Source: a virus. From it: a stretch of 64,000 nt of DNA. Under the pieces are notes generated by a model. It had not been told where the DNA came from, did no database searches, and saw nothing but the letters and a program-made list of their open reading frames with translations. The first letter of the stretch is position 1, and every line of letters starts with the position of its first letter. Below are positions 10,021-50,255 of this stretch, piece after piece. The stretch is taken from positions 53,807 to 117,806 of the IMG/VR virus record IMGVR_UViG_3300007512_001367; one strand, 5' to 3'. Made by a program: the position numbers and the translations under genes.

Positions 10021-10191
10021 TTAAAACTTACCCTTTTCTATCATTTGTTTTGTTACTTTAGAAGGTATTTTTTGTATTTTGCCACCTTTGGCAAGAAATT
10101 CTTTCATCATACGATCACGTTCTTCTTGTGTTGATTTTTTATATTCTTTATCGGATGAATAATTTTTATTGATTCCTTCAAATTTTGGCAT
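10021..10191 (-). CDS. Small protein with LAKGG..KIP motif
   Basis: 56 aa from ATG 10191: MPKFEGINKNYSSDKEYKK... It contains RDRMMKEFLAKGGKIQKIP, closely resembling DALMKQYLAKGGSVEKIP inside the 647-aa protein at 4670. The motif is familiar in small marine T4-like phage proteins; its function is unknown. The start overlaps the radical SAM gene end by 14 nt. Confidence 0.65.
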   Translation of the reverse strand: MPKFEGINKNYSSDKEYKKSTQEERDRMMKEFLAKGGKIQKIPSKVTKQMIEKGKF

Positions 10192-11380
10192 TAAGATGTC
10201 CTTCTAGTTCGGGTAATGTATTTAATATATTATTGTTTCGATGTTTATCTCTTATATGTACTTCTTTGCAAAATGTTTGCCAATTTTTAATGTTAAAGTT
10301 ATTTGTGTTATAGCACATATCTATTAATTGATCAATTGCTTTAGTTATTTCTTTGTTAGTAAAGTCTTTGCTTATATTAGATAATCGTTTACCTGCTAAT
10401 TTTAAGATTTGTTTTGGTAAATTTGTAGGTCTATAATGTAATGGAGCATCTAGTATATAGAAGTAATTTAAATATTTTTTTTCTTTTATCCAGTTAAGCA
10501 ATTTGTCTAGTTTTAATATATTAAGATTAGATACTACTGTGTTTATAATAAATTTAATATTTTGTTGTTTTAAATATTCTATTGTGTTTAATATTTTTTG
10601 CCAATCGGAAGGATATCTTATGTAAGTGTTAGCATCTTTATATGCATCGATACTTACATTTACTTTGGTATTTTTAAATTTTTTGAATATTGATACCCAG
10701 GTTTTATCAGGAAAGATTGTTCCATTTGTTTGTATTTTTAAAGTAATATTTTTTGCAATATCGTTAGGAATAGTAGATAAGACTTTTTTTATTTCGGGAA
10801 CCATTAAAGTTTCTCCACCTCGTATATCTAAAAACAATAATCTTGGATGTATTATTTCCTTAATTGCATCAACAGTATCTACTACAAATTTTGTATAATT
10901 TGTGTTAGGAGCCTCACTAATACCTAATATTTTGTTTTCAGCATGAAACATACTGCTATCACGTTCGTTGCAAGTTAAACATTTTAAATTGCATAGGTTA
11001 CTAATATGTATATCAACATATAAAGGTCTTTGCAAAGTATTAATATGTAATTTTTCTACAATATTTTTATAATAATCAGAGGATTGTTTGTTTTTAATAA
11101 AATAGTATTCATTATATTTTTGTCTATGACTATGATGTCCACTTTTTTCTTGATATTGACATAAACGGCAATCAGCTAATCTTTTACCATTTAACAAGTC
11201 ATTTCTCATTTTTTTAACTTTATCGGAATTAAAAAAATCGTATGAAGTTTGTTTTTTTATATTGCTGTCTTTAAATGTAGTATTACAACAGACGTTGTGA
11301 TTTCCGGTAATTCTTGTAGTTACGTTTATAAAGGGCTGAATGCAGAAATGTTTATTGATCGTTTTGTCCATAGTTGTCAA
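10178..11380 (-). CDS. Radical SAM protein
   Basis: 400 aa. The CxxxCxxC cluster motif is C130, C134, C137 (CNLKCLTC), binding the [4Fe-4S]/SAM centre. An N-terminal CIQPF...CC segment (residues 13-32) and a CRLC pair (71-74) could bind an auxiliary cluster, as in the SPASM/twitch-containing radical SAM proteins found in marine phages. A GGE motif follows the first half (RGGETLM). The substrate is unknown. The start overlaps the upstream gene by 29 nt; Met4 (11371) is an equally plausible start. Confidence 0.85.
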   Translation of the reverse strand: MTTMDKTINKHFCIQPFINVTTRITGNHNVCCNTTFKDSNIKKQTSYDFFNSDKVKKMRNDLLNGKRLADCRLCQYQEKSGHHSHRQKYNEYYFIKNKQSSDYYKNIVEKLHINTLQRPLYVDIHISNLCNLKCLTCNERDSSMFHAENKILGISEAPNTNYTKFVVDTVDAIKEIIHPRLLFLDIRGGETLMVPEIKKVLSTIPNDIAKNITLKIQTNGTIFPDKTWVSIFKKFKNTKVNVSIDAYKDANTYIRYPSDWQKILNTIEYLKQQNIKFIINTVVSNLNILKLDKLLNWIKEKKYLNYFYILDAPLHYRPTNLPKQILKLAGKRLSNISKDFTNKEITKAIDQLIDMCYNTNNFNIKNWQTFCKEVHIRDKHRNNNILNTLPELEGHLNAKI

Positions 11381-12521
11381 GTGCTTGTTGTACTTTACTT
11401 AATGGATCTCTATTCGCTTGGTATAAAATTCCATATCCGCCTGCCCCTTGCCAACGTTCAATATTAACTGGTCTGTCGTCAATTAGTATATTTGGTGTAC
11501 CTGATGCTTTGTCTTTTGCGTATGATTCTTTTCTTCCAGTAATAATAGTTTCATCTGGTTTTTCAATATGTTGTTCAATCCATAGTTTTTTGTATTTTGA
11601 CGAAACTTCATGATCACCCCGTAGTGGTGATGTTAGAATAGAAAACGAACCTCCAGTAAATTTTTTAACCAAAGTAATTAATTGATCAGCATTTGGAAAT
11701 TCTGGGAGTGTTGCAAAAAAGTCAGTGCCAGTAATTCGATTAATTACTTCTTGTTTTAAATCTTTTGTTTTATCTGATGTTAATTGTTTCCAATGTTCTA
11801 CGCCATATAGTTTTTCCACGCCTCCAAAGAAATCAGCTAATACTCCATCCATATCTATATACACTATAGGTTTATTTTCCATTTGTTCATTGTACAACTT
11901 TTCGTTGTTCATTGCAACTTTTACACCCATAGCATTTTGAATCATTTGGTAAATTGTTTTACTTTTTGTACCGCCCATTACAATTTTAGAAAAATTTGCA
12001 AAATCATCGTTTTGTGCAAACTCTCTTGCCTTAGATGCCGAAGCACCTGATATACCTTCTGCGTCTGGATCTCTTTCTCCAGCACTTATAACATCTACAA
12101 AATCAAAATTATAAAGTTCGTTGCCTTTTTGATCTGGTTTGCCATTATATTGTTTTAACAGTTTATCAAATTCCATTACTCTATCACTACCAGCAACCAT
12201 TATAACTCTTGTTCTGCCTTGTGCTTCAATAACTTGTAATGCTTTTATGACTGTATTTGCTTCACTATGTCCAATTTCTAAATCTGGATCATTTATTAAA
12301 GTTCGTAGATATGCTAACTTTTGATTAAAAGAAAGTGGATCTTTTTTTGCGTTTTGTGTATGAGATAGAAAAATAAATCCTTTGCCATTAACTTTTTTAG
12401 CCTGGGCTTGGACCAGTTCAATTAATTTTTGGTGTCCTATTGTGGGAGGATTAAATCGGCCAAAAGCAAAAACGGCTGTTGCCCTACCGTCCTCTTTGAG
12501 AAACAGTTCCTTTAACAACAT
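11352..12521 (-). CDS. Nucleotidyltransferase fused to 5'-nucleotidase-like HAD domain
   Basis: 389 aa. Residues 1-11 (MLLKELFLKED) match the leaders of the neighbours, with L-K-E as cut site. Residues 14-190 form a cytidylyltransferase-fold domain: RFNPPTIGH supplies the T/HxGH motif and GISGASASKAREF the ISGxxxR-type signature, as in NMN or pantetheine-phosphate adenylyltransferases. Residues 215-389 form a HAD phosphatase of the 5'(3')-nucleotidase type (IDMDGVLADF, LTSPL, IDDRPVNI). The pairing suggests nucleotide or NAD turnover. It overlaps the genes on both sides. Confidence 0.8.
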   Translation of the reverse strand: MLLKELFLKEDGRATAVFAFGRFNPPTIGHQKLIELVQAQAKKVNGKGFIFLSHTQNAKKDPLSFNQKLAYLRTLINDPDLEIGHSEANTVIKALQVIEAQGRTRVIMVAGSDRVMEFDKLLKQYNGKPDQKGNELYNFDFVDVISAGERDPDAEGISGASASKAREFAQNDDFANFSKIVMGGTKSKTIYQMIQNAMGVKVAMNNEKLYNEQMENKPIVYIDMDGVLADFFGGVEKLYGVEHWKQLTSDKTKDLKQEVINRITGTDFFATLPEFPNADQLITLVKKFTGGSFSILTSPLRGDHEVSSKYKKLWIEQHIEKPDETIITGRKESYAKDKASGTPNILIDDRPVNIERWQGAGGYGILYQANRDPLSKVQQALDNYGQNDQ

Positions 12522-12866: not shown

Positions 12867-13425
12867 AGTAAAGGTTCTCAAGTAACCACATATAAAAGGG
12901 AGAAGTGAATGTGAATGTCCAAGATCCGTTATGACCCATTTCAGTTACATTTTTAAAGGTCTCAGGCAATTTGTTACCTGCTTTTGCTTGTTGTGATGCC
13001 CATGGTTCAGGATATTCTGGTCTATATATACCTTCGTATACTAATGCTCCTATATCAATTTCATCAATTGTTATTTGACCGATATGTAATGCTTGGTCTT
13101 TAACAATTTTGCCATCTTCAACAATAGTTTGCTTGGGAGTTTTGTTAGTTCTCTTTATAATAAAATCGTATGATTTATTGTGTTCAAGTTCGTGTTCAAA
13201 TGTAATTATAGTTGGTTTATTTTTTGTACTAGTAATTTCATTTTTGAAATATGAATTATCAATGTTAAGTATAGGTTTGTTAGAATCATAATCAAAGAGA
13301 TTTTTATTATCAACATCGGTGATTGTTTTATCGCTTGATTTATTAAGTTTTATTTCTGCTATTGGGGGTGTGTCCCAATATGTTGAAGACAATTCAATTT
13401 TAAATGTTAATTTTTCGGTTTCCAT
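12865..13425 (-). CDS. Predicted beta-sandwich protein
   Basis: 186 aa, beta-rich with a two-part layout. The second half (HIGQITIDEIDIGALVYEG, then P-x-YPEPW, NGSWTFTF and SPFYMWLLENLY) shares its pattern with the 187-aa protein at 44304. No catalytic motif is seen. Such compact beta proteins could bind carbohydrate or be virion appendages, but this is an impression. The start overlaps the 64-aa gene by 19 nt. Confidence 0.6.
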   Translation of the reverse strand: METEKLTFKIELSSTYWDTPPIAEIKLNKSSDKTITDVDNKNLFDYDSNKPILNIDNSYFKNEITSTKNKPTIITFEHELEHNKSYDFIIKRTNKTPKQTIVEDGKIVKDQALHIGQITIDEIDIGALVYEGIYRPEYPEPWASQQAKAGNKLPETFKNVTEMGHNGSWTFTFTSPFYMWLLENLY

Positions 13426-13601
13426 GTAAATTCCAATCCGGACTTATGTCCTATATATGATTTATTTACATCGTTTCTGAATAGTTCTATAGTTATTTGA
13501 GTACCTTCTACAACTACTTTTAAATATTTGTCAGTATGTGATAATACGTCTGCAGTTTTGATTTTACCATTCTCTGTGCAAACGATTTCAACTTGATCCA
13601 T
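13407..13601 (-). CDS. Small conserved hypothetical
   Basis: 64 aa, beta-rich: VEIVCTENGKIKTADVLSHT followed by LKVVVEGTQITIEL and GLEFTWKP. It resembles small uncharacterised proteins of marine T4-like phages. It directly follows the autotransporter start-to-stop block with a one-base gap and precedes the beta-sandwich gene. Confidence 0.6.
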   Translation of the reverse strand: MDQVEIVCTENGKIKTADVLSHTDKYLKVVVEGTQITIELFRNDVNKSYIGHKSGLEFTWKPKN

Positions 13602-13602
13602 G

Positions 13603-16600
13603 TTATTTCTTTTTAATTGGAACGAATTTGTCTGTTTCTAAATCGTAAACTAATCCGTGTGTTAATGCTATTGAATTATTATTTCTGCTGTCACCGTATA
13701 AATTTGCTTTTAAAGTTTTGCCATCTTTTTCGTAACATTTTGGATTTTTCATCCATAAAAATTTACAATTTGTGTGTAATTTTTTAACATAGTTAAATCC
13801 TAAACTAACACCATCGTGTCCATCTTGTCCAGCAATATCTTGTCTGTATTCTGCTTTAAAGTTCCAAGATGCATCCATATCATTTGTTGGTGTGTGATTA
13901 TAAAAGAATCCAATATCTTTTTCAATTTTAGAAGGACTCATATCAGATTCGATAGTTGTATAATTAACATCACCATCTAATGTTCTTGATTCAGGAACCG
14001 TTAAATTCATTGTACCATTTGTAATATGACTTGGTGTTGATAATGAGAATCCCCAAGAATTATTTTGATCCTTGTGTACTTCATATGCTAGTTTCATAGA
14101 TTCTGTTTCAATGTTATCAAATCCTGTTATTAAACTATTATCAGTTGTATTAACATCTGTATAACCTTTTGAATAATCAAAACTTAACACATTGTTACCT
14201 AATTGATATTCAATACCTATTTGTCCAAAATTTGTAATGTTATTATCACCAACTGCTAATGCACCACTTGAAGAGTTACCTAACCAGTTGTCTTGTTCAT
14301 TCATTTGTCCAATTGATGTTTTTAATTTAAATTTATTACTTAACATAAAGTTTTTACCTATATTTGCTGAAAAGTCTCCATTTCCATTTTCACCTGAGTA
14401 TATACCAAAGTTCATATATCCTAAATCATAATTGCCACCTTGTGCAAAATTTCCGTACATAGATTGAATTGGAAGATATGTGTGTCCATTCATCATCATA
14501 TCTATATCAGATACTTTTCTCATATCTTTAACTGAAAAACTTGATCCTAAATTTAGATAATAATCTCTTTCATATTCATCCAATATCATTACTTTTAAAT
14601 TTGCTAAATTACTTGGCAACGCAGTACCAGTTGCAAAATATGTTCCATATACATTTATAATTGGTCCGTTTGTTCTACCTGTTGTTGGAATACCTGTTGC
14701 ACCTTGTGGTTTTGTTGCTTCACTTAAATCTAATAAACCTTGTCCGTGTGTGTTTACATTATAACCATATATATTTTTATTTGCAGTAGACAATATAAGT
14801 TTAACAAGATTGTCACCTTTCATGTGTGGCCACATTTGATTTATTACACCAAATGCTCCAGTTACGTGTGGTGCCGCCATACTAGTACCAGACATATTCA
14901 TATATCCATTGCCACCTAAATGAGTTGGAACAGAACTATTGATAAGATTACCTGGTGCTAAAATATAAAAGTCTGAAACTTTGTATTGGTCATTACAAGC
15001 ATTATTAGAAATGTCTAAACATACGTGACCTGCTTTATTACCTGCAATTGTTCCGTTATCCCAGTTACCTACAATAATCATTTTGCCACCTAATATAAGG
15101 TTTCCACTTGCATCTACTTCTACTGCCCAAATACCGGGATCACCTGAGTGATTGAATCCATAGTTACCTGCAGAGTTTACTAAAATAATATCGTTGTCAG
15201 TTGCTACTTTATAATATTTTGCATTTCCATCACCATTGTCCATTTTTGAAGTAATTTCTGATGCGTTATATGTGCCATCTCCTAATTGAGTTACTGTACT
15301 ACCTTGTCCATTAGTAAACAATGTTGGAGTATTCCAACTCATATTAACTGCGACAATGTTTAAATTTTCGCCATTTGGATCTTTTAATTTTGCAAAATCA
15401 TGTAATGCCTGTTGAGCATAACTTTTTGAAATACCACCATATCCATAATAGTCAACGTTGGCACCAACTAATTCGGCATCAAACGCCACACCGTGATTTC
15501 CTGTATTATTTTTTTTACCTGCTATAATACCTGCAACGTGTGTACCGTGAACTTGTGTATTGCCTGATGTAGATACTGTATTATCATATCTTGTATAATC
15601 ATTGTACCATTTATATTTGCCACTTAATTCTGGGTGATCAGTTTGTTGGTATGTATCAATTATTCCTAATACTGCACCTTTACCTGTCCATCCTTTTGCA
15701 TAAGCATCTGCGGCATTTATAGTATTCAATCCGTGGTTTGTATTGTATTCAGTTGTTTTGTGATCATTTACAACTGTAGACATATTTTCTGTTTTTGTAC
15801 CTAGTGTTGTATCTTGATCTGTGTATGCGTTTGAAATTGTAACCTGTGCAATTTGTGTACCTGAATTACTTGAAGTAGAAACTGTATTAGCAGTTGTTTC
15901 ACTAACTGGTAGTTCTTCTGTTCTTGTAGCAGTACTAATTGTATTAACTGTCCAATCACTTGTCACTACTGTTGCAGTACCTGAAATAGTTTCTGATGTA
16001 CCGTCTTTATATGTAACCTTTGTTTGTGGTGTTGTAGTTGTAATTGTTCTAGAATTTTGTTTTGTAATATCTGTGTAAGTTCTTGTTCTTGTTACCGTAG
16101 TTGTGACTGGTGTAGTAATTGTAGTATCAACATATCTTACGGTTGTTCTTGTCGTAGTGTTGTCACCATTATCAACATCTGTAACAACATCTCTGTTTGC
16201 AGTTGTAGTAACCGCAGTTCCGTTTGCAGTAGTTGTATTTGTATCTTCTGCATCTGCATAATTTGTCACAACATATTGATCGTTGGTTTCAGTAACTGTA
16301 TTAACCGTAGCTTCAAGAGTTTCTGATGTTATTACTGGATTGTCACCTTCTCTAGTTTCTGTTGAAGTTTCTACTGTTGGATCTAAAGCTATTGTAGAAA
16401 CAACCGGTGTTCCATATGTACAGGCACTATCAACTGTTGTACCATTTAATAAAGTTTTTCTAACTATTGTACAAGGTGTTGTTGTAGTAGTTCGGTAATT
16501 TGGAGTAGTAATTGTAATTGTTCTTGTTTCTTGTCCACCACCAGCATTTACAGTTGTCCAGTCACTTGTTGAAGTTGATGCTTCAGCAGTACCTACTGTA

Positions 16601-17214
16601 TCAACTGTTGAAACTGTAGATGTACCACTTACTGTTTCTGTACTTTTAATTTTTTTAGTTTCAGCATAACTTGTTGCAGTTGTATCTTTTTCTGTATTAA
16701 TAATTTCTTGTGCTTTATCTTCTTTTGCAACCAAATTGTATTCTGTTAGAGATACTGCATTACCATTTGATACTTTTTGTATAATAGGTTTAACATGATC
16801 TCTCAAATAAATCATGGCCGCGTATGCTTCTTTATATGAATTAGAATTATATATTGTATATTTTGTTGAATCGTCTTTACTTGATATTAAATCTTCTGTT
16901 TGAGACCAAAGTGTTTCTGCTTGGTTTAACATTGATAATAGTGTATTTGCTGTCTCTATATCATCTGCATCGGGTCCTGTTAATACTGCTTGTAAACTAG
17001 AATAGTTTCCACTTGAAATAGTTGATTGGAAATTTGATAATAAACTTGAATAAGAACTTACAATAGAACTTGATCCTGATAAATTAGATAAATCACCTTG
17101 AACAAAATCATTTACAACACCAGCACCAGAACCACCGCCACCGCCTCCACAAGCTGATAGAGTCGTAGCAAGAGCTGTGCTTAATAAAATCTTCCTTAAC
17201 TTTGCGTTAATCAT
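13603..17214 (-). CDS. Subtilisin-family (S8) autotransporter lipoprotein
   Basis: 1203 aa from ATG 17214; an upstream in-frame TTG at 17250 is part of a promoter -35 and is rejected as start. Residues 1-21 are a signal peptide ending in a lipobox (TLSAC, Cys22) followed by six Gly. Residues about 30-480 are Ser/Thr-rich and repetitive. The S8 protease triad is present: Asp520 (GIIDT), His556 (HGTHVAG) and Ser778 (SGTSMAAPH). From about 920 the sequence alternates beta-strands (FGIYSGENGNGDFSANIG...) as in an autotransporter barrel. It should be an outer-membrane surface protease. It sits among phage genes on the same strand. Confidence 0.88.
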   Translation of the reverse strand: MINAKLRKILLSTALATTLSACGGGGGGSGAGVVNDFVQGDLSNLSGSSSIVSSYSSLLSNFQSTISSGNYSSLQAVLTGPDADDIETANTLLSMLNQAETLWSQTEDLISSKDDSTKYTIYNSNSYKEAYAAMIYLRDHVKPIIQKVSNGNAVSLTEYNLVAKEDKAQEIINTEKDTTATSYAETKKIKSTETVSGTSTVSTVDTVGTAEASTSTSDWTTVNAGGGQETRTITITTPNYRTTTTTPCTIVRKTLLNGTTVDSACTYGTPVVSTIALDPTVETSTETREGDNPVITSETLEATVNTVTETNDQYVVTNYADAEDTNTTTANGTAVTTTANRDVVTDVDNGDNTTTRTTVRYVDTTITTPVTTTVTRTRTYTDITKQNSRTITTTTPQTKVTYKDGTSETISGTATVVTSDWTVNTISTATRTEELPVSETTANTVSTSSNSGTQIAQVTISNAYTDQDTTLGTKTENMSTVVNDHKTTEYNTNHGLNTINAADAYAKGWTGKGAVLGIIDTYQQTDHPELSGKYKWYNDYTRYDNTVSTSGNTQVHGTHVAGIIAGKKNNTGNHGVAFDAELVGANVDYYGYGGISKSYAQQALHDFAKLKDPNGENLNIVAVNMSWNTPTLFTNGQGSTVTQLGDGTYNASEITSKMDNGDGNAKYYKVATDNDIILVNSAGNYGFNHSGDPGIWAVEVDASGNLILGGKMIIVGNWDNGTIAGNKAGHVCLDISNNACNDQYKVSDFYILAPGNLINSSVPTHLGGNGYMNMSGTSMAAPHVTGAFGVINQMWPHMKGDNLVKLILSTANKNIYGYNVNTHGQGLLDLSEATKPQGATGIPTTGRTNGPIINVYGTYFATGTALPSNLANLKVMILDEYERDYYLNLGSSFSVKDMRKVSDIDMMMNGHTYLPIQSMYGNFAQGGNYDLGYMNFGIYSGENGNGDFSANIGKNFMLSNKFKLKTSIGQMNEQDNWLGNSSSGALAVGDNNITNFGQIGIEYQLGNNVLSFDYSKGYTDVNTTDNSLITGFDNIETESMKLAYEVHKDQNNSWGFSLSTPSHITNGTMNLTVPESRTLDGDVNYTTIESDMSPSKIEKDIGFFYNHTPTNDMDASWNFKAEYRQDIAGQDGHDGVSLGFNYVKKLHTNCKFLWMKNPKCYEKDGKTLKANLYGDSRNNNSIALTHGLVYDLETDKFVPIKKK

Positions 17215-17222
17215 ATAGTATA

Positions 17223-17250
17223 ATAATACTATACTTTTGGTAGAAGTCAA
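17223..17250 (-). promoter_or_regulatory. Sigma70-type promoter of the autotransporter
   Basis: The minus strand reads TTGACT (17250-17245), a 16-nt spacer, then TATTAT (17228-17223), with only 8 nt to ATG 17214. No Shine-Dalgarno site lies between, so the mRNA would be nearly leaderless and likely early. Confidence 0.55.
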
Positions 17251-17256
17251 CCAAAG

Positions 17257-17275
17257 TAGGTCTTAAAAAGACCTA
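17257..17275. repeat. Inverted repeat (8-bp stem, 3-nt loop)
   Basis: TAGGTCTT, AAA, AAGACCTA forms a perfect hairpin just upstream of the autotransporter -35 and after the end of the upstream structural gene. No U-tract follows in either direction, so a terminator is doubtful; an operator for the promoter is possible. Confidence 0.5.
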
Positions 17276-17324: not shown

Positions 17325-17903
17325 TTAAGAATTTAACTGAATTGATGTAATAGAACCAGCAGTAGTTGATGTTGCTTTAGCTCTAACATATACAAAATTT
17401 CCTGTAAAATTATTTGAGCTAATTAAAGTGCTTTGATCTGTTGTAAATGTAGTGCCTGAAATATCAAACCAATCTTCTTCAGTAGGAGTAGAAGCAAGTG
17501 TACCTTGCATTTTAATTGATCCTGTAAGTGTAGCATCTACTTTGTATGCCACAGTATGTACACCATCTACTTGTGAATAATAGCCATCACCTTTTGCTTT
17601 AGCACTAACAAATCCTGTATTATCAATAGTATACGTTGTTGAGCCATCGGCTGTTTCTGTTGTAACAATTTCTTCAACAATAATTGATAAACCGTCACTT
17701 GCAACACTTTTTACAGTAAAAGTTGAATTATTATTTGTAGTACCGGTTACTGTAATTAAATCGTATTGTGCAAGATTGCCAAGACTAGTGCTAGTTGCAC
17801 TAATTTTATATTCAGTACCTGTTGCAGTAAAACTGATATCTGTGCCTGTAATATCCGCTTTATGCGTTTTATTTGATAATAATGTTGTGCTTGTCTGTGC
17901 CAT
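17325..17903 (-). CDS. Putative virion structural protein
   Basis: 192 aa, Thr/Ser-rich and beta-rich, starting MAQTSTTLLSNKTHKADITG. The second half has a pattern common in marine T4-like phage structural proteins: GSIKMQGTLASTP..EDWFDI and NFTGNFVYVRAKA, ending IQLNS. It is probably a small tail, baseplate or fibre component. It has its own late-type box 6 nt upstream and no Shine-Dalgarno site. Confidence 0.65.
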   Translation of the reverse strand: MAQTSTTLLSNKTHKADITGTDISFTATGTEYKISATSTSLGNLAQYDLITVTGTTNNNSTFTVKSVASDGLSIIVEEIVTTETADGSTTYTIDNTGFVSAKAKGDGYYSQVDGVHTVAYKVDATLTGSIKMQGTLASTPTEEDWFDISGTTFTTDQSTLISSNNFTGNFVYVRAKATSTTAGSITSIQLNS

Positions 17904-18209: not shown

Positions 18210-18837
18210 TTTTTATTGCGACAAATTTTATTACTTTGTCAATACCTTTTTGTGCTATCATATAGATAGGAGTTAGCATTTTTTCTTCGCTCACATAAAA
18301 ATATCCATGGTAACAATGAGGATATTTGCCAATTAAATAATCTAATACATATTTGTTTGATACTAAACAGTCGTTTTCATTATTTTCTAATAGTCTCCAT
18401 AAACTTTGTTTTTCTGAATCTGTAATGTGTTGATGCACATCTTTTTTAAGATGTATTTGATATTGAAATTTACCATGAGGTAATCTTTTACAACCTACTG
18501 AGTTTTTGCCTAATTTATTATATTTTGGATTAACAGATTCAGACCCATACCAGTCATTCCAAAATTCATTTACAATTTTTTTTGCTAAAGGTTCGCTTGT
18601 ATAAAAAATTACATATTTTTGTTGTATTCTAAATTTCATTTGTGTTCTATAATCTAAAATAAATTTTGCTATTTTGGCTATATTCATATCAAAATCGGTT
18701 GCAGATATTTTATACATTTTTACTAAACGATATAAGTTTTCATCAGTAGTAGGATATAGTTTACTTGCATAAGGCATTTTGAATATGCTTTTAAATCCGT
18801 ATTTTTGATAGTATAATTTATTGTGATGTTTTCGCAT
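18178..18837 (-). CDS. Conserved phage hypothetical
   Basis: 219 aa, basic and rich in Tyr and Lys, starting MRKHHNKLYYQKYGFKSIFKMPYA. No catalytic motif is evident. Proteins opening with a (K)HHNKLYY..Y.FK motif recur in marine T4-like phages without known function. It overlaps the end of clpA by 20 nt and so should be co-expressed with it. Confidence 0.6.
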   Translation of the reverse strand: MRKHHNKLYYQKYGFKSIFKMPYASKLYPTTDENLYRLVKMYKISATDFDMNIAKIAKFILDYRTQMKFRIQQKYVIFYTSEPLAKKIVNEFWNDWYGSESVNPKYNKLGKNSVGCKRLPHGKFQYQIHLKKDVHQHITDSEKQSLWRLLENNENDCLVSNKYVLDYLIGKYPHCYHGYFYVSEEKMLTPIYMIAQKGIDKVIKFVAIKNGRNKKTKKT

Positions 18838-21160
18838 TTTCTTTTTTTGGTTTAAATTGATTTGTTATAATCGGTGCTTTAAATTGTACTTTTAGTTTTG
18901 GTACGACATCGTTAGATAAACTAACGGCAACTCTACCACCTTCTGTTAATTCACCAAATAGTATCATTCTAGATAAAGGTTTCTTAATTTCTTCGTCTAT
19001 AACTCTTTGTAAAGGTCTTGCTCCCATTTTAGCATTAAATCCTTTTTTAATTAAAAATTCAATAGCTTCATCATTAGCATTAACTTCTACATTTTTCTCT
19101 ACGGTCATTGCATTTAATTCTAGTAAGAATTTCTTAACAATTAATTTCATTGTTTCTTTTGCTAGTTTAACAAATTTAACTGTTGCATCTAGTCTATTTC
19201 TAAATTCTGGAGGAAAGAATTTTTTCAAAGCGGTATCATCTTCGCCGGTTCTTTCGCTTGGTCCAAAACCAATACTTTCTCTTTCCATTTCTTCTGCACC
19301 TAAATTTGAAGTCATGATAAGTGTAATATTTCTACAATCTGCTTTTTTACCGTTGGAACCAGTAACACTTCCATAATCCATAACTTGTAATAGCATATTG
19401 GATACATCACGATGTGCTTTTTCTACTTCATCAAATAATACAACCGCGTGTGGATTTTTTTCTATTTCATTTATAAACATACCACCACCCATTGTAGTAT
19501 CTTCGTAGCCTACATAACCTGGAGGTGAGCCAATTAGTTTTGCAATAGAATGTTTCTCTTGATATTCTGACATATCAAATCTTAATAGTTCAACACCTAA
19601 AGTTTTTGCTAATTGTTTTGCAGTTTCAGTTTTACCACAACCCGTAGGTCCTAAAAATAAAAATGATCCAACAGGTTTGTTTAAAGTTTTTAATCCTGCT
19701 CTTGCAACTAATATTCTATCGATAATAGTATTAAGTGCTTTATCTTGTCCAAATATTTGCAGTTTCATTTTTTCTTCTAATGTTTTTAAACTTGTTGCTT
19801 GTTTTTGTGACAGTTGCTCAATTGATATACCTGTTGTAGCAGATATTTCATGTATTATTTCTTCATGGTCTATTTTGCCATCTTTAATTCCGTTTAATCT
19901 TAATCTTGCACACGCCACGTCAATAATGTCAATTGCTTTATCAGGCAATTTTTTATCTGTAACAAATTTTGATGTATATTCTACTGCGTCTTCACAAGCA
20001 TCATCGGTTATAGTACATTTATGAAATTGTTCATAGTATTGTTTAACACCTTTTAATATTTTAACCGCAGTTTCATTTGAAGGTTCACCTATTTGTAATC
20101 TTTGGAATCTTCTCATTAATGCTCTATCTTTTTCAAAGAATTTTCTATACTCTTCCCAAGTAGTAGATGCAATTACTTTTATATTACCCTTCATTAGTGC
20201 AGGTTTAATCATATTAGCCATATCCATACTGTTACCACTTCCAGTAGCACCAGCACCTACCATCATATGTGCTTCATCGATGTGTAATACTGTTTTGCCT
20301 TTTTGATCTAATGCATTTAAAACAAGTTTTAATCTTTCTTCAAAGTCTCCTCTAAATTTAGATCCTGCTATTAAAGAGTTTACATCTAAACTATATACGA
20401 TATGATTTTTTAAATATTCTGGAATATCTTCTTTATTTTTAGCGATACGTCTTGCAAGTCCTTCGATTAGTGCCGTTTTACCTACACCAGGGTCACCTAC
20501 TATTAATACATTATTTTTATTTCTTCTTGCTAGAATTTGTTTTAGTTGATTAGTTTCTTCTATTCGTCCTATTACAGGATCAATTTTTTTATCAAAATAT
20601 TTTTGATTTAAATTCTCAGTATAGTTTTTTAATATTCTATCTGCTTGGTTTGGTCGTAGTTTTTGTTCAACGCCAATCATTCCAGGGCCAGGTCCACCCA
20701 TAGCCGCCATACCTTCGTCTAATATAGTTTCGGTAGATACTAGATCCATTAAGTCTTGTTTATTAACTTTGTGTTTTTTTAAGAAAAATGAACCATAACT
20801 TTTCTTTTCAGCAAATATACTGATTAATATATCTACAGAAGTAACATCTTGTCTACCTTGAAATAATGCTTGAGTAAATGCTCTGTTCATTAATCTTTCT
20901 AATGATGCAGTTTTTCGTGGTGCTATAGGTTTAGTTGATTTTGAAATAATGTCTGTACATTTTGTATCAAGATAATCTTCAACGTCTTTAATCATTTGTC
21001 CAACATTAATTTTAAATTCTGATAATGTGGTACCAATATCTTTGTCCTTGATTAATGCTAATAGTACGTGTTCAATTGTAACGTATTCGTGTTTTCGTTT
21101 TTCTGCTTCGTTTACAGAATTTGTAAATATGTTTTCTAATGATTCATTAGCTTCAAGCAT
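18818..21160 (-). CDS. clpA: ClpA-like AAA+ unfoldase
   Basis: 780 aa from ATG 21160, chosen because GGAGGA precedes it. The N-terminal Clp-N repeats (residues 1-140) are followed by two AAA+ modules: Walker A GDPGVGKT at 222-229 with HIDEAH, and GPTGCGKT at 504-511 with LFDEVEKAH. A SIGF loop at about 629-632 matches the IGF/IGL loop by which ClpA docks on ClpP. The length is close to E. coli ClpA (758). No ClpP gene is in the window, so it probably recruits host ClpP to redirect protein turnover. Confidence 0.92.
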   Translation of the reverse strand: MLEANESLENIFTNSVNEAEKRKHEYVTIEHVLLALIKDKDIGTTLSEFKINVGQMIKDVEDYLDTKCTDIISKSTKPIAPRKTASLERLMNRAFTQALFQGRQDVTSVDILISIFAEKKSYGSFFLKKHKVNKQDLMDLVSTETILDEGMAAMGGPGPGMIGVEQKLRPNQADRILKNYTENLNQKYFDKKIDPVIGRIEETNQLKQILARRNKNNVLIVGDPGVGKTALIEGLARRIAKNKEDIPEYLKNHIVYSLDVNSLIAGSKFRGDFEERLKLVLNALDQKGKTVLHIDEAHMMVGAGATGSGNSMDMANMIKPALMKGNIKVIASTTWEEYRKFFEKDRALMRRFQRLQIGEPSNETAVKILKGVKQYYEQFHKCTITDDACEDAVEYTSKFVTDKKLPDKAIDIIDVACARLRLNGIKDGKIDHEEIIHEISATTGISIEQLSQKQATSLKTLEEKMKLQIFGQDKALNTIIDRILVARAGLKTLNKPVGSFLFLGPTGCGKTETAKQLAKTLGVELLRFDMSEYQEKHSIAKLIGSPPGYVGYEDTTMGGGMFINEIEKNPHAVVLFDEVEKAHRDVSNMLLQVMDYGSVTGSNGKKADCRNITLIMTSNLGAEEMERESIGFGPSERTGEDDTALKKFFPPEFRNRLDATVKFVKLAKETMKLIVKKFLLELNAMTVEKNVEVNANDEAIEFLIKKGFNAKMGARPLQRVIDEEIKKPLSRMILFGELTEGGRVAVSLSNDVVPKLKVQFKAPIITNQFKPKKENAKTSQ

Positions 21161-21378
21161 TAGTCTGTTCCTCCAATTTTTGGCCAAGGTCCTCTGCTAC
21201 CACCGCCACCTAATCCTTTAAAGTGATTAATTTTCTTTTTCTTTTTTCTTCTTTTTACTTTCCTTGTTTGTGGCATACTTTTCTTTTGTTCTTTAGCTCT
21301 CAATTTGTTATAGTCTGCTTCACTTATATCGTTAAATCCAAATTCATCTTCCATAGCATTATACTCTTTGCGTTGCAT
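21160..21378 (-). CDS. Small protein with basic and Gly-rich tail
   Basis: 72 aa as given, or 64 aa if Met9 (21354, MEDEFGFNDISEADYNK) is the start; the later start lies 5 nt after the deformylase stop and looks more natural. An acidic N-terminal motif is followed by a very basic run (KVKRRKKKKK) and a Gly/Ser tail ending in IGGTD. Function unknown. The stop overlaps the clpA start (TAATG). Confidence 0.55.
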   Translation of the reverse strand: MQRKEYNAMEDEFGFNDISEADYNKLRAKEQKKSMPQTRKVKRRKKKKKINHFKGLGGGGSRGPWPKIGGTD

Positions 21379-21889
21379 TAATTTTTTTTTCTAATTTTTT
21401 AACTGCCATATCCCATCGAAGTTTAGATACTTTAGTATTAAATGTAATACCGTTTAGATGATCAAGTTCATGTTGAAAGCATTTACTTTCCATACCATCT
21501 AAATGTTGCATTAAAGTTTCTCCTTTTTTGTTCTCCCATTTTACTGTAACTCTTTTAGGTCTTTCTATTTTTACAAATACTCCTAAAAAACTTAAACATC
21601 CTTCTTCATCCAACGTTTTTTCTTCACTTTCTCGAACTATCGATGGATTCCATATTATAACAGGTTTTTGCATTTTGTCAAACGACTCGTGTCCAAATGC
21701 AAAGAATCGCTTGGTAACGCCTATTTGATTTGCCGCTAATCCCAAACCTCGAGCATTTATCATTAAATTAATCATATCGTTTTCAAATTTTTCAATATCA
21801 TCGTAATCAAGAAGTTTATCGTTTTTAATGTCAAACGGAGTACTTACTTCCGTTAATGCTTTATGTGGATATTGCAATATTGAAATCAT
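21359..21889 (-). CDS. def: Peptide deformylase
   Basis: 176 aa. All three metal-site motifs are present: GLGLAANQ (48-55), EGCLS with Cys98, and QHELDH with His140 and His144. The enzyme removes the N-formyl group from nascent proteins. Marine phages often carry a deformylase, thought to favour synthesis of viral or photosystem proteins. It is coupled to dnaJ by a 4-nt overlap. Confidence 0.95.
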   Translation of the reverse strand: MISILQYPHKALTEVSTPFDIKNDKLLDYDDIEKFENDMINLMINARGLGLAANQIGVTKRFFAFGHESFDKMQKPVIIWNPSIVRESEEKTLDEEGCLSFLGVFVKIERPKRVTVKWENKKGETLMQHLDGMESKCFQHELDHLNGITFNTKVSKLRWDMAVKKLEKKINATQRV

Positions 21890-22731
21890 AAATTTTTTAT
21901 TTTGTTTAAATCTGTTTGTGAAAGTTCCGGTATTATAATGTTTATTCTCACATATAGATTTCCTCTAATATTTAACGTCTTGTGTATGGGCATACCTTGT
22001 CCTTTACAAAGGATCAAAGTTCCGGGTTGTGTAGCAGGTGGTACTTGTATTTTAATAATAGTATCAGTTAATGTTTTTAATTTTAATTCAAGTCCTCGTA
22101 TTGCTTGAAAACAATTTATAGTTTTATCTGTATATAAATCGTTTCCTTTTCTTGTATAGCCATCAGAATCAAGAACACTCATTTGTACTAATAAATCACC
22201 ACGTGGCATATTTTTTATTGAATCATCTCCCATACCTTTGTATTTGAATGTTATACCATGTTGTACACCAGCTGGAATTTTTACTGTGGCAAATTCTTCT
22301 TTGTTTGAAGGTAGTCTATATGATATAGTTTTTTCTAAGGTGTTCATTGCTTCTTTAATTGATATAGACATTCTTACGTTTATACTTTTATTATGTTGTT
22401 GTCGTGTTCTAAAAGTTCTTGTTCGTACATTAGGTCCACCAAAACCAGAAAAGAAATTCTCAAACATATCTTCACCAAAGAAGTCACCAGAAGTAAAATG
22501 AAAGTTTCCTCCTTGTCCACCACTATTTTGGCCGTATTTTCTTATAGTATCATATTCTTGTTTTTTACTAGAATTTTTTAATGTGTCGTAGGCTTCATTA
22601 GCTTCTTTAAATTTTGTTGTATCCCCTCCACGATCTGGGTGATGTTCTTTTGCTAATTTTTTAAAAGCCTGTTTAATTTGTTTGTCAGATGCATTTTCTG
22701 ACACACCTAGTATATTATAATAATTCTTCAT
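21886..22731 (-). CDS. dnaJ: DnaJ/CbpA-type co-chaperone
   Basis: 281 aa. The J domain (residues 1-70) contains HPD at 31-33, followed by a Gly/Phe region (GGQGGNFHF..FFGEDMFENFFSGFGG) and a C-terminal substrate-binding domain without the cysteine-rich zinc finger, so it is of the CbpA type. It should stimulate host DnaK. It is the first gene of a dnaJ-def-clpA operon under a consensus sigma70 promoter. Confidence 0.93.
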   Translation of the reverse strand: MKNYYNILGVSENASDKQIKQAFKKLAKEHHPDRGGDTTKFKEANEAYDTLKNSSKKQEYDTIRKYGQNSGGQGGNFHFTSGDFFGEDMFENFFSGFGGPNVRTRTFRTRQQHNKSINVRMSISIKEAMNTLEKTISYRLPSNKEEFATVKIPAGVQHGITFKYKGMGDDSIKNMPRGDLLVQMSVLDSDGYTRKGNDLYTDKTINCFQAIRGLELKLKTLTDTIIKIQVPPATQPGTLILCKGQGMPIHKTLNIRGNLYVRINIIIPELSQTDLNKIKNL

Positions 22732-48653: not shown

Positions 48654-49764
48654 ATCCTTGTTTTAATCCTTCTATTTGTATTTTTTTCCAATTATCACTT
48701 TCAAGACTGTATGGATATTCGTTTTCCCAACTTCGTAACCCAATAGTGTGAATACTTTTTATATTTAAATTGTTTTTCATTGTATTATACACTTCTAGAA
48801 ATGGTTTATTTTGAAATGCTAATTTCATGTCTACTTGGCCGATTTTAATATATCCAAGAGATAATTTTGGGTCTTCCCAATCGTAATTGTTTTCCTTTAA
48901 CCATTTTTTAAACTCATCTATTTCTTTTTTCTTAAATGCGTGTGTTTCTTCTGTGATAGTATCGCCCCATTCAATATCAAACTCACCAGAATAGTATTTT
49001 TGATGGTTTATTTCGGAACACATAGATTCAGTCATTACAGGTGCGTATTCATCTCTAAAAACTTCATATAAAGTTTTGCCAACTTGTGACCAATGTAGAT
49101 ATACACCACCTAATTCTCTGTTATATCTGTTTTGTTTGAATAATTCATAATCTTCTTCGTGTAAATCGTGTCTAGGTGCATTTAAAAATGTAGTAATTTG
49201 AGAAGGCCTCATCCATGCAGGGTCTACTACACTTTTTCTATAACTTAATACCCAATTTTCTATTTCATGACAAAGATTATTAAGTTGTCTTATTGCATAT
49301 TTTGTTTCTGTGTCTGCTTGTTTGTAGTAATCGGAAATTTTCCATGCAGTTCCTTGTAGTTCTTCAAAATACCTATGTAATAAATTACAAGCATCATGTT
49401 TTAATCTTAATCCTGGTTTCTCCCATTCATTTCCACTTGGACAAAGTCCTGTTGGGAGTGTAGATGAGTGTTGAAAATCTGCTGGAGTAAATGATTTTAA
49501 TTTAGGATATTCTGGATTAAATTTAAATGAATCTATTTGTGCTATATTTTTGTTTAATTCTTCGCAAAGATAAGTTAAATCTCTTTTAGAATCTGCCCAA
49601 CCTAAAAAACAGAAGTTTTTTTCTAATATTCTTTTTTCTGTTAAATTATCTTTTAGTGCTTCAAGAAATCTTTTTCCTAAAGGAGTATCGTAAATGTGTA
49701 CTCTTACTTGTTTGTTGTTGTATTGAATTACTAAATTTTCAAATAGAGTTATTTGCTTGTCCAT
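48631..49764 (-). CDS. Conserved marine-phage protein of unknown function
   Basis: 377 aa with phrases NRYNRELGGVYLHWSQVGK, EINHQKYYSGEFDIEWGD and ADFQHSSTLPTG that recur in marine T4-like phages (memory). No enzymatic motif is seen. The start overlaps the QueD-like gene by 16 nt. Confidence 0.65.
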   Translation of the reverse strand: MDKQITLFENLVIQYNNKQVRVHIYDTPLGKRFLEALKDNLTEKRILEKNFCFLGWADSKRDLTYLCEELNKNIAQIDSFKFNPEYPKLKSFTPADFQHSSTLPTGLCPSGNEWEKPGLRLKHDACNLLHRYFEELQGTAWKISDYYKQADTETKYAIRQLNNLCHEIENWVLSYRKSVVDPAWMRPSQITTFLNAPRHDLHEEDYELFKQNRYNRELGGVYLHWSQVGKTLYEVFRDEYAPVMTESMCSEINHQKYYSGEFDIEWGDTITEETHAFKKKEIDEFKKWLKENNYDWEDPKLSLGYIKIGQVDMKLAFQNKPFLEVYNTMKNNLNIKSIHTIGLRSWENEYPYSLESDNWKKIQIEGLKQGYESYSMR

Positions 49765-50255
49765 CCCTTGAATCCTGCATTTGGGTTTGTGTAGATTGAG
49801 CTATTTTTGTCATTCTCTCTAGCTTCAACACTAATAACCCAAGCACGACCACGAGATTTTTCACGTAACCATTTATCTGTCCATTCACAAAGATAATGTG
49901 CAGTACCTTCCATGCCAGGTCCCATTGGATGAGTTCTAATTCGGCATACACCTGCTTGTTCTAATTCTTTAAATTTATCCATATGTGGATCTTCTTCATC
50001 AAGTACTAAAGTATGGTCATACATATGATCTAAATGTGCTTTTAATTCTTTTAAGTCACCATAGTCTACTGCAAAGCCTTCTTTTGTAAATGTTTTAATG
50101 CCAAATACAAAATGAAAACTTCTGCTGTATCCGTGAATTAAATGGCAGTTGCCATCATGTCTATATTGTCTATGAGCACACGGAAAATTCCAAAAACTTT
50201 TTGTGGAAGTAAAACATTCTTCTGTTACGTTGTCTTTAATTTCTATATCAGCCAT
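49749..50255 (-). CDS. QueD/PTPS-like tetrahydropterin synthase
   Basis: 168 aa. Zinc-site histidines are in FPCAHRQYRHDGNCHLIHGYS and the later DHMYDHTLV contains the DH pair. The family makes 6-carboxy- or 6-pyruvoyl-tetrahydropterin from dihydroneopterin triphosphate, in queuosine or pterin synthesis. No queC or queE lies in this window, so the product is uncertain. Confidence 0.8.
   Translation of the reverse strand: MADIEIKDNVTEECFTSTKSFWNFPCAHRQYRHDGNCHLIHGYSRSFHFVFGIKTFTKEGFAVDYGDLKELKAHLDHMYDHTLVLDEEDPHMDKFKELEQAGVCRIRTHPMGPGMEGTAHYLCEWTDKWLREKSRGRAWVISVEARENDKNSSIYTNPNAGFKGWTSK

What the first reader, a model, noticed from the sequence alone, without database searches (positions are those of the whole stretch)
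13603..17214. Subtilisin autotransporter lipoprotein amid phage genes
An outer-membrane surface protease with intact Asp520-His556-Ser778 and a barrel-like end is encoded between phage genes, under a host-type promoter with minimal leader. A lytic phage making a surface protease could strip receptors (superinfection exclusion) or process fibres. Its base composition and lack of GCWGC match the surroundings.
Basis: partly seen in the sequence, partly recalled or inferred. Interest (0 to 1): 0.78.

Follow-up and report, generated by a model that had tools for sequence, protein, structure and literature searches.

The report
Phage-encoded surface subtilisin autotransporter family
A large bacterial virus carries, on its own promoter, a gene for a lipid-anchored protein-cutting enzyme built to sit on the outside of the infected cell; the gene belongs to an apparently undescribed family found in about a hundred uncultured viral genome fragments, and it probably remodels the host surface during infection.

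Summary
At 13603-17214 (minus strand) an intact 1203-aa ORF encodes a signal peptide with lipobox, a Thr-rich stalk, an S8 subtilase domain and a predicted outer-membrane beta-barrel. It is no misassembly or host contamination: the same gene, in the same slot, occurs in viral contigs from other datasets (99.9-100% and 44-80% identity). One profile scan found 102 viral contigs encoding relatives. Asp520, His556, Asn684 and Ser778 are identical in 45 of 45 diverse relatives, and dN/dS is about 0.28. AlphaFold2 gives a subtilisin domain (closest: autotransporter Ssp) and a barrel whose listed structural matches are all outer-membrane or related beta-barrels, including NalP and EspP. Phage members form one branch apart from the sampled bacterial homologs. 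In close relatives the gene sits in a small co-translated operon behind a conserved sigma70-type promoter. Four relatives have the same slot without it, scattered over the phage tree: repeated gain or loss, as expected of accessory cargo. No GenBank phage in the collection encodes the full architecture. Best reading: a phage-borne relative of NalP/SphB1, displayed on the infected cell to cut host surface proteins, most plausibly phage receptors. Localisation, expression time and substrate are inferred, not shown.

The parts
13603..17214 (-). phage subtilase autotransporter lipoprotein gene, 1203 aa (stop codon at 13603-13605)
17149..17214 (-). lipoprotein signal peptide and lipobox LSAC, residues 1-22 (Cys22 = predicted lipidation site, Gly at +2)
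   Evidence: sequence; L19/A21/C22 invariant in close group; +2 residue is G, Q, N or V, never D, in the 28 relatives with a lipobox
15820..16617 (-). Thr-rich variable region, about residues 200-465 (stalk, inferred)
   Evidence: fastest-evolving part; absent from the short relatives
14665..15720 (-). peptidase S8 domain, about residues 499-850; catalytic codons D520 15655-15657, H556 15547-15549, N684 15163-15165, S778 14881-14883
13780..14439 (-). C-terminal outer-membrane beta-barrel, about residues 926-1145
   Evidence: AlphaFold2 and fold search
13606..13779 (-). C-terminal extension after the barrel, residues 1146-1203, conserved only in the window's clade (two invariant Cys)
17223..17250 (-). 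sigma70-type promoter: -35 TTGACT 17245-17250, 16-bp spacer, -10 TATTAT 17223-17228; start codon 8 bases downstream
   Evidence: conserved in relatives
17257..17275 (-). hairpin TAGGTCTTTTTAAGACCTA upstream of the promoter, possible terminator or operator
   Evidence: sequence; function not tested
17325..17903 (-). upstream syntenic neighbour, 192 aa, weak match to phage virion structural proteins; left edge of the slot
13407..13601 (-). downstream syntenic neighbour, 64 aa; right edge of the slot

Best explanation
The gene encodes a phage-borne subtilisin autotransporter of the lipidated NalP/SphB1 type. Inferred route: Sec export, lipidation at Cys22, barrel insertion into the host outer membrane by BAM, and exposure of the subtilase domain on the cell surface on a Thr-rich stalk. 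It is read from its own sigma70-type promoter, so host RNA polymerase could transcribe it early and apart from the virion genes. Its most likely work is to cut host surface proteins, in particular phage receptors or structures displaying them, so that the infected cell no longer adsorbs competing phages and progeny are not lost to debris. Shown by computation: domain make-up, conserved active site, purifying selection, phage residence, conserved promoter, repeated gain/loss. Inferred: surface location, early timing, substrate and benefit.
For: S8 domain with D/H/N/S identical in 45/45 relatives at 24-80% identity; dN/dS 0.28 overall, 0.26 in S8, 0.23 in the C-terminal domain. Lipobox without Asp at +2. 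AlphaFold2: S8 closest to autotransporter Ssp 8e7f, Z 37.9; barrel alone has NalP 1uyn Z 11.5, EspP Z 12.2, Hbp Z 11.1 among hits that are all outer-membrane or related beta-barrels. Same slot and promoter in relatives, with start and stop codons overlapping the flanking small genes. Gene present or absent at this slot needs 5 changes on a ClpA tree. 102 viral contigs with relatives. NalP and SphB1, both lipidated, cut other surface proteins of their own cell (PMC5472700; PMC9977779). Phages are known to block their own receptor with a lipoprotein: T5 Llp (PMC9586334, title and start of abstract seen; the blocking itself from general knowledge).
Against: No experiment, no host identified, no substrate. 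Pfam autotransporter barrel PF03797 is not hit. In the window's clade the barrel is followed by about 58 extra residues rather than ending at an aromatic residue. Gain/loss also fits other accessory roles such as nutrition or anti-defence. Timing is inferred from promoter type alone.
Confidence: 0.42

Rival explanations
1. Nutritional auxiliary gene: the displayed subtilase digests extracellular protein so that the infected cell gains amino acids for phage synthesis.
For: Surface subtilases can digest environmental protein (general knowledge); accessory presence/absence and wide spread in uncultured viral contigs fit auxiliary metabolic genes.
Against: Lipid anchoring plus barrel suits cutting of neighbouring surface proteins more than bulk digestion; no peptide-uptake gene was recognised among the neighbours examined.
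Confidence: 0.2
2. Release factor: the protease acts late to sever surface layers, pili or matrix so that progeny escape and disperse.
For: Same surface topology; NalP expression is thought to lead to biofilm dispersal (PMC5472700).
Against: Own sigma70-type promoter; not in a recognised lysis cassette.
Confidence: 0.13
3. Counter-defence or competition: it cleaves surface or periplasmic defence factors, contact toxins or predator attachment proteins.
For: Repeated gain/loss is typical of arms-race genes.
Against: No linked known anti-defence gene was seen among the neighbours examined; no target known.
Confidence: 0.12
4. Virion-related: processes tail fibres or capsid proteins, or is part of the particle, as other phage S8 peptidases may be.
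For: Predicted structures include S8-like folds in phage proteins, one named baseplate wedge; the upstream neighbour resembles a virion structural protein.
Against: Export signal, lipobox and barrel are not expected in a virion or cytoplasmic maturation protease; gene absent from close relatives with the same structural neighbours.
Confidence: 0.07
5. Assembly artefact or host DNA joined to phage DNA.
For: Bacterial homologs of the same architecture exist.
Against: Both junctions recur in contigs from other datasets and the slot recurs in more than ten diverged relatives; GCWGC-free like the rest of the phage.
Confidence: 0.01

Closest known systems
NalP (Neisseria meningitidis) and SphB1 (Bordetella pertussis), lipidated subtilase autotransporters
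   Same: lipobox, S8 passenger, C-terminal outer-membrane barrel; barrel model matches NalP 1uyn (Z 11.5)
   Different: encoded by phages; long Thr-rich stalk before the S8 domain; barrel not recognised by PF03797; extra C-terminal tail in the window's clade
Ssp (Serratia marcescens, PDB 8e7f) and EprS autotransporter subtilases
   Same: best sequence and structure match of the S8 domain (phmmer 9.5e-27; Z 37.9)
   Different: far below the EprS equivalog cut-off (83.9 against 1700 bits); bacterial chromosomal gene
Bacterial S8-barrel lipoprotein in genome G224 (L132, 773 aa)
   Same: lipobox, Gly-rich linker, S8 and barrel aligned end to end with the phage profile (524 bits)
   Different: on a bacterial contig (beside an ABC transporter gene); outside the phage clade in the tree
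Phage S8 proteases in GenBank (Bacillus SP-15, FADO, Goe3; Pseudomonas Y5) and phrog_3677
   Same: S8 domain
   Different: tblastn matches in the rows shown stop at the S8 domain and do not cover the barrel
T5 Llp, superinfection-exclusion lipoprotein
   Same: phage-encoded lipoprotein acting at the outer membrane (as proposed here)
   Different: Llp blocks the receptor and is no protease (PMC9586334; general knowledge)

Membership tests
Peptidase family S8 (subtilases) | S8 domain above curated cut-off | tested here: met
   PF00082 115.9 bits against cut-off 21.8
Peptidase family S8 (subtilases) | Asp-His-Ser triad and oxyanion-hole Asn | tested here: met
   identical in 45/45 sequences
Peptidase family S8 (subtilases) | proteolytic activity | not testable with these tools
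   needs expression and assay
Classical (type Va) autotransporter | N-terminal export signal | tested here: met
   lipoprotein-type signal by sequence, conserved; cleavage not shown
Classical (type Va) autotransporter | C-terminal outer-membrane beta-barrel of about 12 strands | tested here: met
   AlphaFold2 pLDDT 76, 11-12 long strands; listed fold matches are outer-membrane or related barrels, including NalP, EspP, EstA, Hbp
Classical (type Va) autotransporter | match to the Pfam autotransporter beta-domain PF03797 | tested here: not met
   no hit in the window protein or in ten relatives including two bacterial ones; sequence-profile membership fails although architecture and fold fit
Classical (type Va) autotransporter | terminal aromatic residue of the last barrel strand at the C-terminus | tested here: inconclusive
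   F, W or Y is last in 30/45 relatives; window clade carries a further tail
Classical (type Va) autotransporter | surface exposure of the passenger | not testable with these tools
   needs protease-accessibility assay
Lipidated subtilase autotransporters (NalP/SphB1 type) | lipobox Cys and no inner-membrane retention Asp at +2 | tested here: met
EprS equivalog NF051851 | score above curated cut-off | tested here: not met
   83.9 against 1700 bits
Superinfection-exclusion proteins | blocks adsorption of further phage | not testable with these tools
   needs infection or adsorption assay

The most novel reading that the evidence does not exclude
A widespread, phage-specific clade of outer-membrane subtilisins with which phages enzymatically strip receptors from the surface of the infected cell: superinfection exclusion by proteolysis rather than by receptor blocking.
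Probability: 0.35. Interest if true: 0.85.

Novelty: new variant of a known kind. Interest (0 to 1): 0.64.

Why it matters
Phages are known to hide or block receptors with small proteins; an enzyme displayed by the phage on the outside of its host would be a different means and would make infected cells change their own surface proteome. The family is large, its active site is strictly kept, and its bearers and non-bearers differ by one clean gene, so its effect can be tested directly. It also shows that phages can carry whole autotransporter-like proteins.

Tried and rejected
Misassembly and host contamination: rejected by independent contigs and synteny. The one genome-contig hit, a MAG called Betaproteobacteria TMED41, looked like a host copy but is a phage contig with the same neighbours, so it tells nothing firm about the host. 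Full-length homologs in GenBank phages: none found with three queries. T4-type late promoter TATAAATA: rarer than chance in the window (2 against 9.3 expected) and none before the gene. Pfam and PHROGs gave no family for the C-terminal domain; only folding did. Link to preQ0/7-deazaguanine genes in distant relatives (FolE, QueD, QueE) judged to be shared neighbourhood, not shared function. Literature searches found no phage-encoded subtilase autotransporter, within an open-access library only. The N-terminal stalk was not folded.

Full report
OBSERVATION. The ORF at 13603-17214 on the minus strand is intact. It lies in a 117.8-kb virus record of which the window is the end part. Counted from the ATG at 17214 the protein has 1203 residues. 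It begins MINAKLRKILLSTALATTLSAC-GGGGGG, a lipoprotein signal with lipobox. Pfam finds Peptidase_S8 (E 2.8e-33). In a 45-row alignment of relatives at 24-80% identity, Asp520, His556, Asn684 and Ser778 are identical in every row.

NOT AN ARTEFACT. Viral contigs from other datasets carry the gene at 99.9-100% identity with both junctions, and further contigs at 51-79% by best segment. Neighbour genes are the same: homologs of the 192-aa gene at 17325 upstream and of the 64-aa gene at 13407 downstream. Against the 79%-identical relative, dN/dS is 0.28 (S8 0.26, C-terminal domain 0.23). The gene's GC and third-position GC match its neighbours, and like the whole window it has no GCWGC. All 17 close relatives counted also have none in their loci, at GC 31-47%, so the gene has probably long been in these phages.

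FAMILY. A profile scan found 102 viral contigs encoding relatives, 80 of which were kept. Some contigs are large (up to 302 kb). Three forms occur: the window's long form with lipobox and stalk; other long forms with lipobox; and short forms of about 660-690 aa with an ordinary signal peptide and no stalk. Most forms end at an aromatic residue, as outer-membrane barrels do; the window's clade adds a conserved tail. Distant relatives lie in a different but shared gene neighbourhood with FolE, QueD, QueE and an exonuclease. In GenBank phages only the S8 domain is matched in the rows shown, not the barrel. An uncultured-phage protein in BFVD matches over nearly the whole model (E 1.7e-49).

STRUCTURE. 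AlphaFold2 on residues 452-1203 (32 rows) gives mean pLDDT 78 and pTM 0.65. The S8 domain is closest to the autotransporter Ssp of Serratia (8e7f, Z 37.9, rmsd 2.9 over 313 residues). The C-terminal part folded alone (18 rows) gives pLDDT 76 and pTM 0.71 with about 11-12 long strands. The listed PDB matches are outer-membrane or related (mitochondrial SAM) beta-barrels, among them NalP, EspP, EstA and Hbp. Foldseek E-values are weak (best 3e-4) and barrels resemble each other, so this supports 'outer-membrane barrel' more firmly than 'autotransporter barrel'. The Pfam autotransporter profile PF03797 is not hit, also not in the bacterial homologs.

ORIGIN. Bacterial genomes hold proteins of the same make-up. 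The best, L132, is a 773-aa lipoprotein beside an ABC transporter gene. The barrel profile alone hits 24 of 398 genomes sampled from the phylum of the TMED41 MAG at E up to 1e-8; one of these is the MAG with the phage contig. In a tree of 32 phage and 22 bacterial sequences the phage ones lie on one side of one branch (SH-aLRT 86), with L132 next to them. Bacterial sampling was limited, so one acquisition is suggested, not shown.

LOCUS AND EXPRESSION. In close relatives the usual order is promoter, a 60-aa gene with a hydrophobic end (x60), protease, a 114-aa gene (x114), then the 64-aa gene. In examples inspected the protease ATG overlaps the x60 stop and its stop overlaps the x114 start. 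x114 was not found in some protease bearers (L003, L009, L011, L027). The promoter (TTGACA-like, 16-bp spacer, TATACT-like) ends a few bases before the first ATG and is visible in 16 of 18 loci; the other two have an extra gene inserted there. In the window both small genes are missing and the promoter abuts the protease. Similar promoters with very short leaders precede dnaJ and several other window genes, so this is a habit of the phage. Four relatives (L087, L095, L098, L104) hold x60 and x114 but no protease, and none was found elsewhere in their partial records. On a ClpA tree, with a distant outgroup, presence needs five changes, of which well-supported branches force at least two. The gene is therefore accessory and comes and goes in evolution.

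MECHANISM. The most likely course is export, lipidation, barrel insertion and display of the protease on the infected cell. The lipidated subtilase autotransporters NalP and SphB1 cleave neighbouring surface proteins (PMC5472700; PMC9977779). For a phage the most useful targets are receptors. Nutrition, progeny release and counter-defence remain possible. Surface location, timing and substrate are inferences.

VERDICT. It is a new variant of a known kind: a phage-borne clade of subtilase autotransporters. Membership in S8 is met; membership in the autotransporter family is met by architecture and predicted fold but not by the Pfam profile. The host is not known; a Gram-negative one is implied by the lipoprotein signal and barrel.

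Noticed in passing
window 1-64000 and 17 close relatives (L003-L027, L087, L095, L098, L104): GCWGC is wholly absent: 0 observed against about 44 expected in the window, and 0 in each relative at GC 31-47%, while GCSGC is not depleted. Distant relatives mostly have it near the expected level, but L065 and L073 also have none. This suggests escape from a GCWGC-specific restriction system.
   Followed up: partly
window 49749-50255; L028 6223-6912, 13178-13633, 14248-15114: QueD-like gene in the window, and FolE, QueD and QueE genes around the protease in distant relatives: preQ0/7-deazaguanine genes, possibly DNA modification.
   Followed up: partly
upstream of window starts 22731, 28079, 50817, 55638 and 17214: Near-perfect TTGACA-16/17-TATAAT-type promoters ending only a few bases before ATG: apparently leaderless early-type transcripts; the T4-type late motif TATAAATA is depleted.
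   Followed up: partly
window 18818-22731: Phage-encoded ClpA-like ATPase, peptide deformylase and DnaJ in a row: a protein quality-control cluster.
   Followed up: no
L013 (GTDB MAG Betaproteobacteria TMED41, NHCU01000066.1): Phage contig binned into a bacterial MAG; it also carries a SufB-like gene (935-2368) next to the protease.
   Followed up: partly
L046-L059 group: Active-site surroundings deviate (HGTGLAG, GTSQAAA instead of HGTHVAG, GTSMAAP) though the triad residues are kept: perhaps altered specificity.
   Followed up: no
window 11352-12521: Fusion of a cytidylyltransferase-like domain with a 5'-nucleotidase-like domain, next to a radical SAM gene (10178-11380).
   Followed up: no
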